Of a stretch of DNA of 64,000 bases, positions 22,568 through 27,402 are shown piece by piece (the first letter of the stretch is position 1; each line of letters starts with the position of its first letter). The DNA is taken from the NCBI RefSeq assembly GCF_026240635.1, contig NZ_CP110848.1, forward strand, positions 2,048,501 through 2,112,500. The letters run 5' to 3'. A program made the translations under genes and the position numbers. Origin of the DNA: Trichothermofontia sichuanensis B231 (lineage in GTDB: Bacteria > Cyanobacteriota > Cyanobacteriia > B231). Under the pieces are notes generated by a model that did no database searches, was not told the origin of the DNA, and worked only from the letters and a program-made list of their open reading frames with translations.

Positions 22568-24007
22568 CTAGGGATCACGGACACACCGAAAGCCCACAAA
22601 AAGTTCACGGACGTGGGGGTAGTACCAATTACGAAATGAGTTACGGAGCACCCACGGTTGGGTTGCCCAACTACCGCCACGCAGCACGCGATGGGCTTGA
22701 TCAAAATAAGCTTGGGAATAGCCCACATAGGGATAGGGTTGAAAACCGGGATAGGGGGCAAACCAACTGGCTGTCCATTCCCACACATTGCCTAATAAGT
22801 CATAACAACCCAAGGCACTTTGGCCGGCTGGATACTGATTTACAGGAGTAGTTCCCCCCACCTGATGTCCGTAATTGCAATGGCTAGCGGTTGGGCTGGC
22901 CTCTCCCCAGGGATAGGGGCGAGCTTGATGGGGATGCGGGGCAGGCGGCGCAAACGGGTCCCAACTGGCTGCTTTTTCCCATTCTGCCTCCGTTGGTAGA
23001 CGCTTACCGACGAACCGTGCATAGGCATCTGCCTCATACCAGCTGACCCCACACACTGGATGGTCTGGCCGCTGTCCAGCGGCGTATAAAGGTCCTCGTA
23101 CACCAGCCTGTTGTAACCACTGCCAACCCGCTTCTGACCACCATCGCCGATCGTCATAGCCGCCCGCAGCGATAAATCGGGCATACTGTCCCCAGGTAAC
23201 GGGATAGCGATCGATCCAGTAGGAAGGTAACGTTACAGTATGGCATCGCTGCTCATTATCCAGGGCCATTGCTGCCTCACTCCCCATCGAGAAGGGTCCC
23301 CCTGGAATTGCCACCATCTCATCTCTCTCATCCCAACAACTCTCCACCGGCAACGTCCCGATATCGCTAGGAGACAGGCTAAGTGCGACAGGCGATGCAG
23401 ATGCCGTTGGGTCAGCGGCTAGGCACAGGAGTTGGTGGACAAGGGTGATCGTTTCCAGATGCTGGCTTTCATGTTGCAGCAGAAACCGTCCCAACGGTTC
23501 CAGTTGGGGAATCGTTGCCGTTGACCAATAGTCCCCGACCTGAGTCCGCACCTCGTTGAGATAGGCGTAGAGGGTGGCGAGGTCGGGTAAATGGACGCGT
23601 TCTGCTTTGGGAAGACCATCCGCCGCAAACAGGGTGTCGTAGGCCGGGTTGAGGGGGGGATGCCCGATACCCCGCTGGAGCAGCCACAGGGCTTCGGTAT
23701 AGGCAATATGGCCGATATGCCAGCCGATCGGGCTGAAATCGGGGTGGGCCTGACGGTCGATTAAGTCTGGATCGATCGTTGCCAGCACCGTCAGGGTCCG
23801 TTGCCGACAGGCTTGCAGCTCGGCCCAGAGATCTTGCAGGCGATCGGCAAGCGGGGCAGGGGGAGTGGGGCAACTTGACAGCAGGGAGGCGGGACGAGCG
23901 ATCGGGGTTCCGTCAGCGGGCACCCCCCTAGGGGGTTGTCCGTGCGTCGATACTTCCCCAGCGCACCTGCCCCCTAGCGGCAATTCAGAGGGAAATGAAG
24001 TGGACAT
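22568..24007 (-). CDS. egtB: EgtB-like sulfoxide synthase (ergothioneine type)
   Basis: EgtB is a non-haem iron enzyme that joins cysteine or gamma-glutamylcysteine to trimethylhistidine with oxygen. The N-terminal DinB-like domain holds the iron ligands, in GWHIGHIAYTEALW and LLQHESQHLETI. The C-terminal FGE/sulfatase-modifying domain has PVTWGQYARFI, VCGVSWYEADAYARFVGKRL, LLGNVWEWTASWFAPYPGF and FRNWYYPHVRELFVGFRC. The first 50 residues are Pro/Ser-rich and not conserved, so the true start may be further downstream. The stop side of egtC overlaps it by 23 bases, which supports one operon. The partner methyltransferase EgtD is not in the window. EgtB or an OvoA-like activity cannot be separated by sequence reading alone. 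Confidence 0.85.
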   Translation of the reverse strand: MSTSFPSELPLGGRCAGEVSTHGQPPRGVPADGTPIARPASLLSSCPTPPAPLADRLQDLWAELQACRQRTLTVLATIDPDLIDRQAHPDFSPIGWHIGHIAYTEALWLLQRGIGHPPLNPAYDTLFAADGLPKAERVHLPDLATLYAYLNEVRTQVGDYWSTATIPQLEPLGRFLLQHESQHLETITLVHQLLCLAADPTASASPVALSLSPSDIGTLPVESCWDERDEMVAIPGGPFSMGSEAAMALDNEQRCHTVTLPSYWIDRYPVTWGQYARFIAAGGYDDRRWWSEAGWQWLQQAGVRGPLYAAGQRPDHPVCGVSWYEADAYARFVGKRLPTEAEWEKAASWDPFAPPAPHPHQARPYPWGEASPTASHCNYGHQVGGTTPVNQYPAGQSALGCYDLLGNVWEWTASWFAPYPGFQPYPYVGYSQAYFDQAHRVLRGGSWATQPWVLRNSFRNWYYPHVRELFVGFRCVRDP

Positions 24008-24773
24008 GCTGATCGGCTCCCACGGTCAAAAGGCTATTCTCGGCAAATGGTACCCAATCTCCCATGAACAGGGGTTCCGATGCAACGACGATCGCCCCTG
24101 GCAAGCAGGGATCATTCTGCAACCAATAGAGCGACGGGGCTGGCGGACGATTACTAAACCGTGAGGCCAACAGGCTTTGACCATCACTTAGGAGCACATT
24201 TGCCTGAACCGTGACATTAGCTTGGGTGGCCAATTCCGCCACCTGCATTAGGGTGCGGTGTAACGCTTCCGTCAGGCTGATTCCCGGTTGGATGAGCCAC
24301 TCATGGAGGAACCCCCCAAACAGGTGCTCTGAGTCGGTACTCCCCTGGATTGCCTGGTAAGCCTGATCACAGAGGCGATCGCGCAGGGGGCGGTAGAGAC
24401 TGGTGCGAAAATTCTCGATAAACCCATTATGGGAAAACAAAAACTGCTGGTACTGGAACGGATGGCAATTACTCAAATCCACCGCTTGTCCCGGCGTGGC
24501 GCTGCGGACATTGGCCAACACACAACCCGACTCAATGTAGCGACTTAGCGCCGGCAGATTAACATCATTCCAAATTGGGAGCGTATGGCGGTAGGTATAG
24601 GGTTCGGTTTGCCGCTGGGGATGATACCAGCCAATCCCAAACCCATCCGCATTCAGCAGGGCCACCTGTAACTCTCGCGGTTGATAGCTCTGCACCACTA
24701 ACGAGTGCTCTGGCTTGTATAGCAAGGTCTCCAGGTTTACCGGAGGACCCAGATACCCTAAGAGGCGACACAT
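23985..24773 (-). CDS. egtC: class II glutamine amidotransferase EgtC
   Basis: This 262-residue Ntn hydrolase has Cys2 as catalytic nucleophile after Met removal (MCRLLGYLG). Conserved parts are NADGFGIGWY, ANVRSATPG, NCHPFQYQQFLFSHNGFIENF and STDSEHLFGGFL. In ergothioneine synthesis EgtC removes the gamma-glutamyl group from the EgtB product. The position just upstream of egtB on the same strand agrees with that role. Its start codon touches the edge of a family B element, so its promoter must lie in or beyond that repeat. Confidence 0.87.
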   Translation of the reverse strand: MCRLLGYLGPPVNLETLLYKPEHSLVVQSYQPRELQVALLNADGFGIGWYHPQRQTEPYTYRHTLPIWNDVNLPALSRYIESGCVLANVRSATPGQAVDLSNCHPFQYQQFLFSHNGFIENFRTSLYRPLRDRLCDQAYQAIQGSTDSEHLFGGFLHEWLIQPGISLTEALHRTLMQVAELATQANVTVQANVLLSDGQSLLASRFSNRPPAPSLYWLQNDPCLPGAIVVASEPLFMGDWVPFAENSLLTVGADQHVHFISL

Positions 24774-25061
24774 ACAGCCTTTACCTAATTGACTCAGTAC
24801 GCAGTTAAGGGTTAGATCTTATGGTCAATCCAAATAAGAACGATACAGTTTTCCACTCGTCTCTCCCGCTCTGGGAGACGGGCCAGGGGTGAGGGTGCTG
24901 TTTCAGCCTAAATTGCAATGACCTAAATTGCAATGACTATAATCCAACCGGCAGCCCGCATCCCCCAACCCCTGCGCCCAAAAAGGGTGAGGGCCGCACC
25001 AGCGGGCTGCCCCTATCCTACCCAAGTAAAACGGTCCTTTATGATTGAAGCAAAGGCTGTA
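24773..25061. repeat. family B element, copy B2, interrupted by A3
   Basis: The left end TACAGCCTTTACCTAATT begins at the egtC start codon. The right end ATTGAAGCAAAGGCTGTA closes at 25061. The middle contains a complete family A element at 24820-24941. Without it, the flanks GTTAGATCT and ATCCAACCGGCAG join to match the uninterrupted family B sequence. Confidence 0.8.
24820..24941 (+). repeat. family A element, copy A3, nested in B2
   Basis: The left end is TATGGTCAATCC and the right end TGACTATA. A 15-base stretch, CCTAAATTGCAATGA, is duplicated inside its right end. It sits at a TA inside the family B element. Confidence 0.85.
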
Positions 25062-25077
25062 TCCAGCTGTTAGGCGC
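25061..25077 (+). other. attC-like half-site, left flank of HEPN gene
   Basis: The sequence ATCCAGCTGTTAGGCGC contains GTTAGGC, which fits the integron R' core GTTRRRY. TGTTAGGCGC is a perfect inverted repeat of GCGCCTAACA on the right flank of the gene. ATCCAGCTGTTA is also repeated directly, with one change, at the right flank. Confidence 0.35.
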
Positions 25078-25102
25078 ATAATCACTCGCACAGATCAGGG
25101 GA

Positions 25103-26338
25103 ATGTTGAGCTTTACCGACAGTCTGAAACAAGTTATAGCCGATGTCAAAATGTCGGGTGGAGCGGTGATAGAGCGCAGCACTCCGCCTTCCGAAGTCCT
25201 TCAGGAATTGAAGGAATTTGCGCTTCGGGGTATCGCAGAAAACAACGCTCCAGCATGGACGCTTTTGGAGTGGTTTACCGAAGGTTTCTTTGATGAGTAT
25301 GTGCGCGTATGTTGGGTTCATCTTCGTAAACTTGGCATATCAGACAACAACTTGATCTATCGTGTTATTACCCAAGTCATAGGGTCACGACTGTCTAGAA
25401 AAGCCACTCGTTGGGATTGTACAGAAAAGGATTTTGAAAAATGCTTGGCTCTCTCTTTAGTTGATGTCTGGGAGCAAATGGGAGATGAGCAAACCCTGAC
25501 CTATACCTTTGCCAAAGAAAGATGGTTAATTGCTTGGGATTATCAAAAATCCTGCTGGAAAACCACAAGTCTTGGAGAGTTGTTACTTGAACTATCTCCA
25601 GTTCAGACAGCAACGTTTGTGCTCAGTATAGATACTCTGTTTAGCACAGGAAAGTGTGACTTTCGTTATATTAGTACAGATGTCTTGAATGAAATCCTTC
25701 ATCCCCAACAGGAAAACTACGATTATCCCCATTTGATACCTCTTCGCCGAGACCTTCTAACTCGATTGGGCATTCTACGAGAACCCGATGATTATGGGCC
25801 TGATCGTATTGAACTAACACCTGTTGGTAGAATTGTGCTTAGCCGAGTCCTGGACAAAGATAATCCCCTCAAAGACACGGCATCTGTATTGATTGCAACG
25901 GAAGAAGTTGGAGATACATTAAAGGGTTCAGTCACTGAGATTAAGGATATTATTTCACTTATCAGTGAGAGTGAATTAGTTGATAATGCAAATCGAGAAT
26001 CTATCAATACGGGTATTCAGCTTTATCTTTCTGGAAAATATCTAGATTCTTTGCGGGTTCTGTATCCTTCAATAGAAGCTATCATCAATAATATGCTAAG
26101 TAGGGCAGGGCAGCAGCCAGAACAACTTAGGGGCTTGGTAGACAAGGCTCGATGGCTAGAACAGAATGGTTGTATTCCGCCCGACGTTTCGAATGCGGTA
26201 GAAATCTTTACTAGCCGAAACAGAGTTTTGCATGGCAACTTCTCTCCACCACAAGACTATGTGTTTCCTTTGTGCTTGCTTGCCTTCCGATACCTACGAA
26301 GGTTGCTGTTAGAGTATCGTGCTGTATCTGAAGGGTAA
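25103..26338 (+). CDS. accessory protein with C-terminal HEPN-like motif
   Basis: This 411-residue protein of unknown function starts at the ATG at 25103, with GGGG four bases upstream. Residues 1-270 are helical and charged with no motif I can name. Residues 300-405 look like a four-helix HEPN/Apea-type domain: INTGIQLYLSGKYLDSLRVL, then YPSIEAIINNML, and finally RNRVLHG at about 372-378. The last motif fits the R-N-x3-H signature of HEPN ribonucleases, which are common in toxin-antitoxin and phage-defence proteins. The base composition is visibly poorer in G+C than its neighbours, and I see no GCGATCGC in it. It is flanked by attC-like half-sites and by repeat elements. Transfer is likely; a defence role is inference. 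Confidence 0.75.
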   Translation: MLSFTDSLKQVIADVKMSGGAVIERSTPPSEVLQELKEFALRGIAENNAPAWTLLEWFTEGFFDEYVRVCWVHLRKLGISDNNLIYRVITQVIGSRLSRKATRWDCTEKDFEKCLALSLVDVWEQMGDEQTLTYTFAKERWLIAWDYQKSCWKTTSLGELLLELSPVQTATFVLSIDTLFSTGKCDFRYISTDVLNEILHPQQENYDYPHLIPLRRDLLTRLGILREPDDYGPDRIELTPVGRIVLSRVLDKDNPLKDTASVLIATEEVGDTLKGSVTEIKDIISLISESELVDNANRESINTGIQLYLSGKYLDSLRVLYPSIEAIINNMLSRAGQQPEQLRGLVDKARWLEQNGCIPPDVSNAVEIFTSRNRVLHGNFSPPQDYVFPLCLLAFRYLRRLLLEYRAVSEG

Positions 26339-26340
26339 TA

Positions 26341-26371
26341 GCGCCTAACAAGCGCATCCAGCCGTTATCCC
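26341..26371 (+). other. attC-like site, right flank of HEPN gene
   Basis: GCGCCTAACA at 26341-26350 holds GCCTAAC, which fits the integron R'' core RYYYAAC. After a short arm comes ATCCAGCCGTTATCC, a near-direct repeat of the left flank. The site is much shorter than a full attC (usually 57 bases or more), so it may be a deleted remnant. Confidence 0.35.
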
Positions 26372-26390
26372 TTGATTGGCCGTACGGCAA

Positions 26391-26445
26391 AATACAGTTA
26401 TTTCAGATTAGAAAGAGACGTCTAAGCCCCTCTCCCGATCTGGCT
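26391..26445 (+). repeat. truncated family A element, copy A13
   Basis: It carries the alternative end AGTTATTTCAGATTAGAAAG followed by AGACGTCTAAGCCCCTCTCC. It lacks the other terminus. Confidence 0.6.
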
Positions 26446-26671
26446 GACGCACTATCGTGATCAAAAAACAATTCAGGATCGCCCAAATGATCGGCGCATT
26501 GCCCCCCGGACACTGGTTTGGAATTAGGCCATTCCTTAAGGGTTGAATATCATCCTGAATGCGGTCAATCTCTTCCTGATTTTAAAAAGAGAGCTACAGC
26601 GGTTCCCGCTCCAGTGAGGCCCACCGCCCCAGCATCCGTTCAAGCCATTTGCGGTAAATTTCTGCTGTCAT
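26446..26671 (-). pseudogene. decayed small ORF downstream of methyltransferase
   Basis: Reading leftward from an ATG at 26671, the frame gives 25 residues (MTAEIYRKWLERMLGRWASL and five more), then a stop, four codons, another stop, then about 50 protein-like residues including NQEEIDRIQDDIQPLRNGLI and a hydrophobic stretch APIIWAILNCFLITIV. All three parts are in one frame, suggesting a small membrane-type gene with two stops, cut by element A13. I do not recognise it. Confidence 0.25.
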
Positions 26672-26712
26672 TGCCGCTGGACTTCCTGCCCGATCCCCCC
26701 ACCCAACCAGAG

Positions 26713-27402
26713 CTATATTCCCCCTGGCTCAGGCGACCACGGACGGGCGATCGTCCAATGACGATCGGAAGATTGATAAACCTGCACATTTGCTAACCCT
26801 ACTGTTTGCACCATGGCCTCAACTTCTGCCAACGTAAACGCTGCACAAAGGGAATCATGAAACAATTGGGCCTGGTGGGCATCATACTCTGGGCCAATGC
26901 GAGCCACCAATGCCGCCACCGTCTCCCGATCCGCCGGACGCAACAAGTCCCGTAACAGAATGCCTCCCCCCGGCTTCAAAACCCGCTGTAACTCACGCAG
27001 GCAGGGCAGGGGATCGGGCAAATGATGGACAATGCTGTTGGCAATCACCAGATCAAACTGGGCATCGTTGTAGGGTAATTGCTTCGCGTCTACCCATTCC
27101 AGCAAAATTTGGGCCTGACAGCCGGCTGCCTGCACATTGCTGGCCCCCACCTTGAGCATACTTTCTGACAGGTCGATCGCCACGATCTGCCATTGAGGAC
27201 GCCGCTGGGCAATGAGAATGGGAATCCGAGCCGTACCTGTGCCCAGATCCAGAACCTTCACGGGGTCTTGCCAGGTATCTGGGGGACCCAGGGCGATCGC
27301 TAATTCCGCAAAATCTGTATTCACTGCCGTGAAATCCATCGCATCATAGGCGATCGCCTCCGCCCAAGTATCCATTACCTCTGGCTCCAAAGTCCGCTCC
27401 AT
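26713..27402 (-). CDS. class I SAM-dependent methyltransferase
   Basis: This is a 229-residue methyltransferase. SAM-binding motif I is KVLDLGTGTARIPIL, the motif II region is IVAIDLSESMLKVG, and the post-motif is QFDLVIANSIVHHLPDPL with HHLPDP, common in the ubiE/Methyltransf_11 group. I start at 27402 (MERTLEPEVMDTWAEA), which matches cyanobacterial homologues. 33 more codons are open upstream. The substrate is unknown. It does not look like EgtD, which is larger. Confidence 0.85.
   Translation of the reverse strand: MERTLEPEVMDTWAEAIAYDAMDFTAVNTDFAELAIALGPPDTWQDPVKVLDLGTGTARIPILIAQRRPQWQIVAIDLSESMLKVGASNVQAAGCQAQILLEWVDAKQLPYNDAQFDLVIANSIVHHLPDPLPCLRELQRVLKPGGGILLRDLLRPADRETVAALVARIGPEYDAHQAQLFHDSLCAAFTLAEVEAMVQTVGLANVQVYQSSDRHWTIARPWSPEPGGI

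What the first reader, a model, noticed from the sequence alone, without database searches (positions are those of the whole stretch)
25061..26371. HEPN-motif gene flanked by integron attC-like half-sites
The gene is bounded by TGTTAGGCGC and GCGCCTAACA, a perfect 10-base inverted pair containing GTTAGGC and GCCTAAC, which fit the attC core sites. ATCCAGC(T/C)GTTA is repeated directly at both sides. The gene has a composition unlike its neighbours and no HIP1. This looks like a single captured gene cassette. The C-terminal RNRVLH motif suggests an RNase of the kind used in defence or toxin systems.
Basis: partly seen in the sequence, partly recalled or inferred. Interest (0 to 1): 0.68.

Follow-up and report, generated by a model that had tools for sequence, protein, structure and literature searches.

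The report
Fossil integron cassette with HEPN gene
A cyanobacterial gene that probably encodes an RNA-cutting (HEPN) protein arrived as a mobile integron gene cassette, and is now stranded because its recombination site has lost its hairpin arm and the genome's own integron recombinase is broken.

Summary
ORF 25103-26338 (411 aa) lies between GTTAGGC (25069) and GCCTAAC (26343), inside a 10-bp perfect inverted pair. ATCCAGC(T/C)GTTA occurs on both sides. GC is 43% against 54% for the window. Absence of HIP1 is uninformative (about 1.1 expected), though HIP1-core hexamers are 0 against about 10 expected.

The cassette reading is supported. A covariance model built from 14 attCs near intact cyanobacterial integrases finds 10 attCs (E<0.01) in this genome, three beside a frameshifted, truncated integron integrase 71 kb from the gene. 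In the 2.1-kb locus its only good match is 26341-26372 (14.2 bits, E 0.008), aligned as R''-spacer-spacer-R' with the L/VTS arm missing. The extended 3' end GCGCCTAACNNGYGCATCCAGCC recurs after a second captured gene in this genome and in none of 385 other cyanobacterial genomes. MITEs cut both flanks, so this is a decayed cassette, not a mobile one.

The C-terminal HEPN reading is supported: it resembles DUF4209/PDC-S39 C-termini (hhalign 94.5%, E 8e-8), and an AlphaFold2 model (pLDDT 83) matches HEPN toxins best. RNase activity and defence are inferred. The N-terminal 250 aa have no detected relative.

Novelty: new member of a known kind.

The parts
24773..25061 (.). MITE-1, ends TACAGCCTTT...AAAGGCTGTA with TA duplication, inserted between the start codon of the class-II glutamine amidotransferase gene (23985-24773, -) and the cassette
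   Evidence: 46 matching stretches in own genome; several copies end exactly at AAAGGCTGTA with unrelated DNA after it
25062..25069 (+). TCCAGCTG: last bases (spacer') of the preceding attC, or of the insertion site
   Evidence: same as TCCAGCCG at 26357-26364 except one base; compare TTCAGCCGTTGGGCGC ending the full attC of L009
25069..25075 (+). R' core GTTAGGC; cassette would start at G25069^T25070
25103..26338 (+). cassette gene, 411 aa; residues 264-411 HEPN domain (E in SIEAIIN, RNRVLHG), residues 1-250 no known domain; no promoter-like site upstream
26341..26372 (+). decayed attC: R'' GCCTAAC 26343-26349, spacer AAGCGC, ATCCAGCC (L'' fused to spacer'), next R' GTTATCC 26364-26370; L/VTS/L' hairpin arm missing
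   Evidence: CM R1 14.2 bits, E 0.008 for 2.1 kb, best hit of the region; no such hairpin-less site in 20 integron regions plus the window and L008/L009 under a strict 7-of-7 core criterion
26371..26392 (.). 22 bp of unassigned DNA between the decayed attC and MITE-2
   Evidence: mostly outside the repeat copies
26393..26443 (.). truncated MITE-2 (TACAGTTATTTCAGATTAG...; full copies TATAGTTATTTCAG...GCAATGACTATA)
   Evidence: about 36 similar stretches in own genome
26440..26511 (.). fragment of another repeat, probably a transposase gene remnant (by eye)
   Evidence: three copies at 83-86% identity in own genome

Best explanation
The gene is a former integron gene cassette stranded in a cyanobacterial chromosome. 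A circular cassette carrying a promoterless HEPN gene and an attC recombined at G^TT (25069/25070), probably into an array that once lay here. Later the L/VTS hairpin arm of its attC was lost, plausibly by slippage between the copies of ATCCAGC in L'' and spacer', and two MITEs inserted on either side. The genome's integron integrase is a pseudogene, so the gene is fixed. The product is a two-part protein: about 250 N-terminal residues of unknown fold, probably a sensing or binding part, and a C-terminal HEPN domain of the DUF4209/PDC-S39 type. The expected action is metal-independent cleavage of RNA by the R-x4-H site when triggered, giving dormancy or abortive infection. Shown: cores, CM match, shared 3' end, other attCs, dead integrase, MITE boundaries, remote homology and HEPN fold. 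Inferred: order of events, RNase activity, defence role.
For: R' before and R'' after the gene, 10-bp perfect complement. CM built from attCs near intact cyanobacterial intI picks 26341-26372 as the only good match in 2.1 kb and 10 sites in the genome at E<0.01, three of them in classic divergent array position beside the intI relic (L008). Integrase relic: three reading frames, mostly 50-59% identical to intact cyanobacterial IntI over residues about 25-190, C-terminal catalytic half missing. Second cassette (SUKH gene, L009): a full attC (41.9 bits) precedes it, cores GTTGGGCGC...GCGCCTAAC, and a 3' end matching CGCCTAACNNGYGCATCCAGC, a pattern found only at these two places in 386 genomes. 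Integron integrases over the cut-off in 78 of 242 class genomes. GC and GC3 foreign. HEPN: hhalign 94.5%, E 7.8e-8 over 118 columns with RNRVLHG aligned to RN-x3-HG; AF2 pLDDT 82.6, pTM 0.73; Foldseek top 25 nearly all HEPN toxins or proteins (7ae8, 6m6u, 2hsb; probability up to 1.00, TM 0.46-0.69).
Against: 14.2 bits would not be significant in a whole-genome scan; it counts only because of its position. No full attC fold: the L box and VTS are absent. No left half of the upstream attC. No homologous cassette elsewhere, so the cassette boundary cannot be checked by presence/absence. The second cassette's 3' attC is also too degraded for the CM. Foldseek E-values are weak (best 0.044), as is common for short helical bundles, and the first single-sequence fold failed (pLDDT 36.7). 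The AF2 alignment is shallow and holds only remote relatives.
Confidence: 0.74

Rival explanations
1. A single cassette was integrated by an integrase (own, before decay, or in trans) directly at a non-classical attG site upstream of the amidotransferase gene, without any array there. TCCAGCTG is then host sequence.
For: Only one gene between the cores; no left half of an upstream attC; pre-MITE flank would run straight into the ATG of the amidotransferase; attG insertion is known from the literature (Loot et al. 2024, cited in PMC12444791).
Against: TCCAGC(T/C)GTTA occurs at both ends and resembles the 3' end of a real attC in the same genome (TTCAGCCGTTGGGCGC), which is expected for an array and not for a random target. 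The genome shows other decayed array pieces (L009, L008).
Confidence: 0.22
2. The inverted pair is chance or the ends of an unrelated transposon-like unit; the gene is ordinary foreign DNA.
For: 9-bp core pairs enclosing an open frame occur about once per window by chance; CM score low on a genome scale.
Against: Shared 23-nt 3' end with a second captured gene, found nowhere else in 386 genomes; CM match at the predicted position; no target duplication directly outside the inverted pair.
Confidence: 0.04
3. The protein is not a defence RNase but a HEPN protein used in normal RNA processing, or a non-catalytic binding domain.
For: HEPN domains are also used in RNA processing (PMC3710099); the Ex3[KR] motif is Ex3N here (SIEAIIN).
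Against: R, the polar N after it, and H are intact; relatives include PDC-S39, a candidate phage defence family; cassette and scattered distribution favour an accessory role.
Confidence: 0.25

Closest known systems
Integron gene cassettes and CALINs (clusters of attC lacking an integrase), cyanobacterial attC type
   Same: R'/R'' cores, orientation, promoterless single ORF, other true attCs in the genome, integrase relic
   Different: attC has lost L/VTS; isolated single gene; MITEs at both sides
DUF4209 (PF13910) / PDC-S39 C-terminal domain
   Same: helical domain with P-x-[IV]-E motif and RN-x3-HG; profile match 94.5%
   Different: no Pfam hit by itself; lacks the G-x-N before RN; N-terminal part unrelated to DUF7380; 411 instead of about 600 aa
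Integron cassette HEPN (PDB 3jrt; Anantharaman et al. 2013, PMC3710099)
   Same: HEPN protein carried by an integron cassette
   Different: not among the 50 best fold matches listed nor found by sequence; our protein has a large extra N-terminal part
HepT/MNT-HEPN toxins (7ae8, 6m6u, 5yep)
   Same: best fold matches
   Different: no nucleotidyltransferase antitoxin gene seen in or beside the cassette

Membership tests
Integron gene cassette | R' core GTTRRRY at the start and complementary R'' RYYYAAC after the gene | tested here: met
   25069 GTTAGGC, 26343 GCCTAAC, 10-bp perfect complement
Integron gene cassette | attC with R and L boxes, extrahelical base and VTS | tested here: not met
   R boxes and spacers only; L/VTS arm absent. 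Hence 'decayed cassette', not a functional one
Integron gene cassette | one promoterless ORF in the attC direction, tightly flanked | tested here: met
   33 bp before, 2 bp after; no promoter-like site upstream
Integron gene cassette | integron integrase in the genome | tested here: met
   only as a pseudogene
Integron gene cassette | presence/absence or excision as a unit | not testable with these tools
   no near relative held; only same-class genomes
HEPN superfamily | R-x4-6-H with polar residue after R | tested here: met
   RNRVLH, residues 374-379; motif definition from PMC3710099
HEPN superfamily | four-helix bundle with the motif at the end of helix 3 | tested here: met
   AF2 pLDDT 82.6, helices 32-46, 50-71, 97-108 (motif follows), 121-147 of the 148-residue model; HEPN top hits
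HEPN superfamily | acidic residue in Ex3[KR] of helix 2 | tested here: inconclusive
   E conserved in all 18 sequences, K/R is N here
HEPN superfamily | RNase activity | not testable with these tools
   needs an assay
PDC-S39 candidate defence family | whole-protein match including the N-terminal DUF7380 part | tested here: not met
   only 281-338 match (E 0.00098); N-terminus no credible hit

The most novel reading that the evidence does not exclude
An undescribed single-gene antiviral system, a new N-terminal sensor joined to a DUF4209-like HEPN RNase, is distributed among cyanobacteria as integron cassettes, and remains under selection after the integron died.
Probability: 0.25. Interest if true: 0.55.

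Novelty: new member of a known kind. Interest (0 to 1): 0.36.

Why it matters
Integrons in proteobacteria have recently been shown to store phage-defence genes (2025 papers cited in PMC12444791). This locus suggests the same for cyanobacteria and shows how a cassette gene becomes a fixed chromosomal gene after its attC arm and integrase decay. The protein is an orphan that could be tested directly.

Tried and rejected
(1) L' box upstream: GGCTGTAT before the core pairs well with L'' ATCCAGCC, giving an 18/23 inverted repeat. Rejected because GGCTGTA is the end of MITE-1. (2) A 60-bp attC ending at G26397^TT: it folds with a GCCGT/ACGGC stem, but that GTT lies inside MITE-2. (3) HIP1 absence as evidence: not significant. 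(4) Homologue searches for the whole protein: none in genome contigs (two scans), viral contigs, plasmids, phages, 145 relatives or 386 phylum genomes (only noise, best E 0.006). (5) Single-sequence AF2 failed. (6) Hairpin-less attC as a natural class: none found in 20 integron regions. (7) PHROGs hits weak and uninformative; Pfam endosialidase hit to the N-terminus (below cut-off) judged chance.

Full report
Observation. The inverted pair, the direct repeat, the ORF and the odd composition are all as described. The core heptamer alone is worthless as evidence and so is the missing HIP1 octamer (1.1 expected in 1.3 kb). A 9-bp complementary core pair that tightly brackets a gene is rare (my estimate 6e-4 per window), but this needed outside support.

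Setting. The window is part of a 4.44-Mb single-contig genome, a cyanobacterium judging by HIP1 and by the cyanobacterial records that share its repeats. Upstream on the minus strand lies a class-II glutamine amidotransferase and, by eye, an EgtB-like gene; downstream a methyltransferase on the minus strand. The cassette stands between two multi-copy MITEs. MITE-1 occupies 24773-25061 with ends TACAGCCTTT/AAAGGCTGTA and TA duplication; its right end is fixed by other copies. MITE-2 starts at TA 26393. The DNA that needs explaining is therefore 25062-26392: TCCAGCTG^TTAGGCGC - gene - GCGCCTAACAAGCGCATCCAGCCG^TTATCCCT....

Integron context. No integrase over the NCBIfam cut-off exists in the genome, but one region gives three matches in three frames. 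Compared with intact cyanobacterial IntI it is mostly 50-59% identical over residues about 25-190 in three frames, and the C-terminal half is gone, where an ORF with a Uma2 domain follows. In the same class, 78 of 242 genomes have an integrase over the cut-off, so the lineage is integron-rich; published surveys also report cyanobacterial integrons and many intI pseudogenes (PMC2426708). From 20 stretches beside integrases a simple R/L-box scan found true attCs, which were aligned and made into a covariance model. The model recovers dozens of attCs in those stretches and, in the window's own genome, ten at E<0.01: three next to the dead integrase in the classic divergent position, one in L009, two at 2.973 Mb, and four single ones. 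The genome thus holds a dead integron and scattered attC relics.

The site itself. With filters off, the best match in 24700-26800 is 26341-26372, 14.2 bits, E 0.008; the next is E 1.9. It aligns as R''-spacer, then directly spacer'-R', with the L''-VTS-L' arm missing. No such arm-less site (with perfectly matching cores) occurs in the 20 integron stretches, the window or L008/L009, so it looks like decay and not a class. The upstream TCCAGCTG^TTAGGCGC looks like the last bases of another attC: compare TTCAGCCGTTGGGCGC at the end of the full attC in L009. The extended 3' end GCGCCTAACNNGYGCATCCAGCC is shared with the SUKH-gene cassette of L009 and its core pattern occurs nowhere else in 386 cyanobacterial genomes or, in full, in viral contigs. 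In L009 ATCCAGCC is followed by what looks like a VTS and GGCTGAA, so it is L'' there. In the window L'' seems fused to spacer', as expected from slippage between two ATCCAGC copies (inference).

Protein. Whole-length homologues were not found in any collection searched. PADLOC gave a weak match to PDC-S39 at residues 281-338. Cyanobacterial PDC-S39 proteins include one checked here that carries DUF7380 and C-terminal DUF4209, which Anantharaman et al. class as HEPN (PMC3710099). A profile of 17 such domains from cyanobacterial loci matches our residues 264-411 with probability 94.5% and E 7.8e-8 over 118 columns, RNRVLHG on RN-x3-HG. AlphaFold2 with these relatives gives pLDDT 82.6 and pTM 0.73; nearly all of the 25 best PDB matches are HEPN proteins, mainly HepT toxins. 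The N-terminal 250 residues match nothing credible; by eye residues 195-250 look like a winged helix, untested. No promoter-like site precedes the gene, as usual for cassettes.

Verdict. A decayed integron cassette carrying an orphan HEPN gene. Kind: known; member: new. An integron-cassette HEPN protein (PDB 3jrt) and defence genes in integron cassettes are already described for other bacteria (PMC3710099; works cited in PMC12444791). Unknown: array or attG origin, the N-terminal domain, activity.

Noticed in passing
L008 (G000:C1:2143000-2149500): Relic integron: intI pseudogene with three attCs on its 5' side and apparently broken toxin-antitoxin cassettes (VapBC-like and BrnTA-like by eye).
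   Followed up: partly
L009 2330-3470 (G000:C1:3954830-3955970): Small cassette array: 3' half of an attC, a short gene-less cassette, a full attC, a SUKH (SMI1/KNR4) gene cassette, then a second copy of the gene-less cassette; the gene-less cassette also occurs at 2.973 Mb (L118/L124).
   Followed up: partly
L122 1030-1589 (near G000:C1:3552657): HNH-endonuclease-like ORF (by eye) followed by a lone attC (41 bits): another stranded cassette candidate.
   Followed up: no
window 24773-25061, 26393-26443 and repeats across the genome: At least two MITE families, both with TA-type ends, each with about 40 matching stretches or more in the genome, often nested next to each other.
   Followed up: partly
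L141 1054-2121: In another cyanobacterium a BrnA-like N-terminus (by eye) runs in one frame into a PDC-S39/DUF4209 domain whose RN-x3-HG motif is mutated (KHRMARG).
   Followed up: no
L144-L147: Further small HEPN-like proteins of 318-366 aa with R-H-G-x2-H-G instead of RN-x3-HG; three of the four stand beside WD40 or helicase-like ORFs (by eye); possible uncharacterised defence genes.
   Followed up: no
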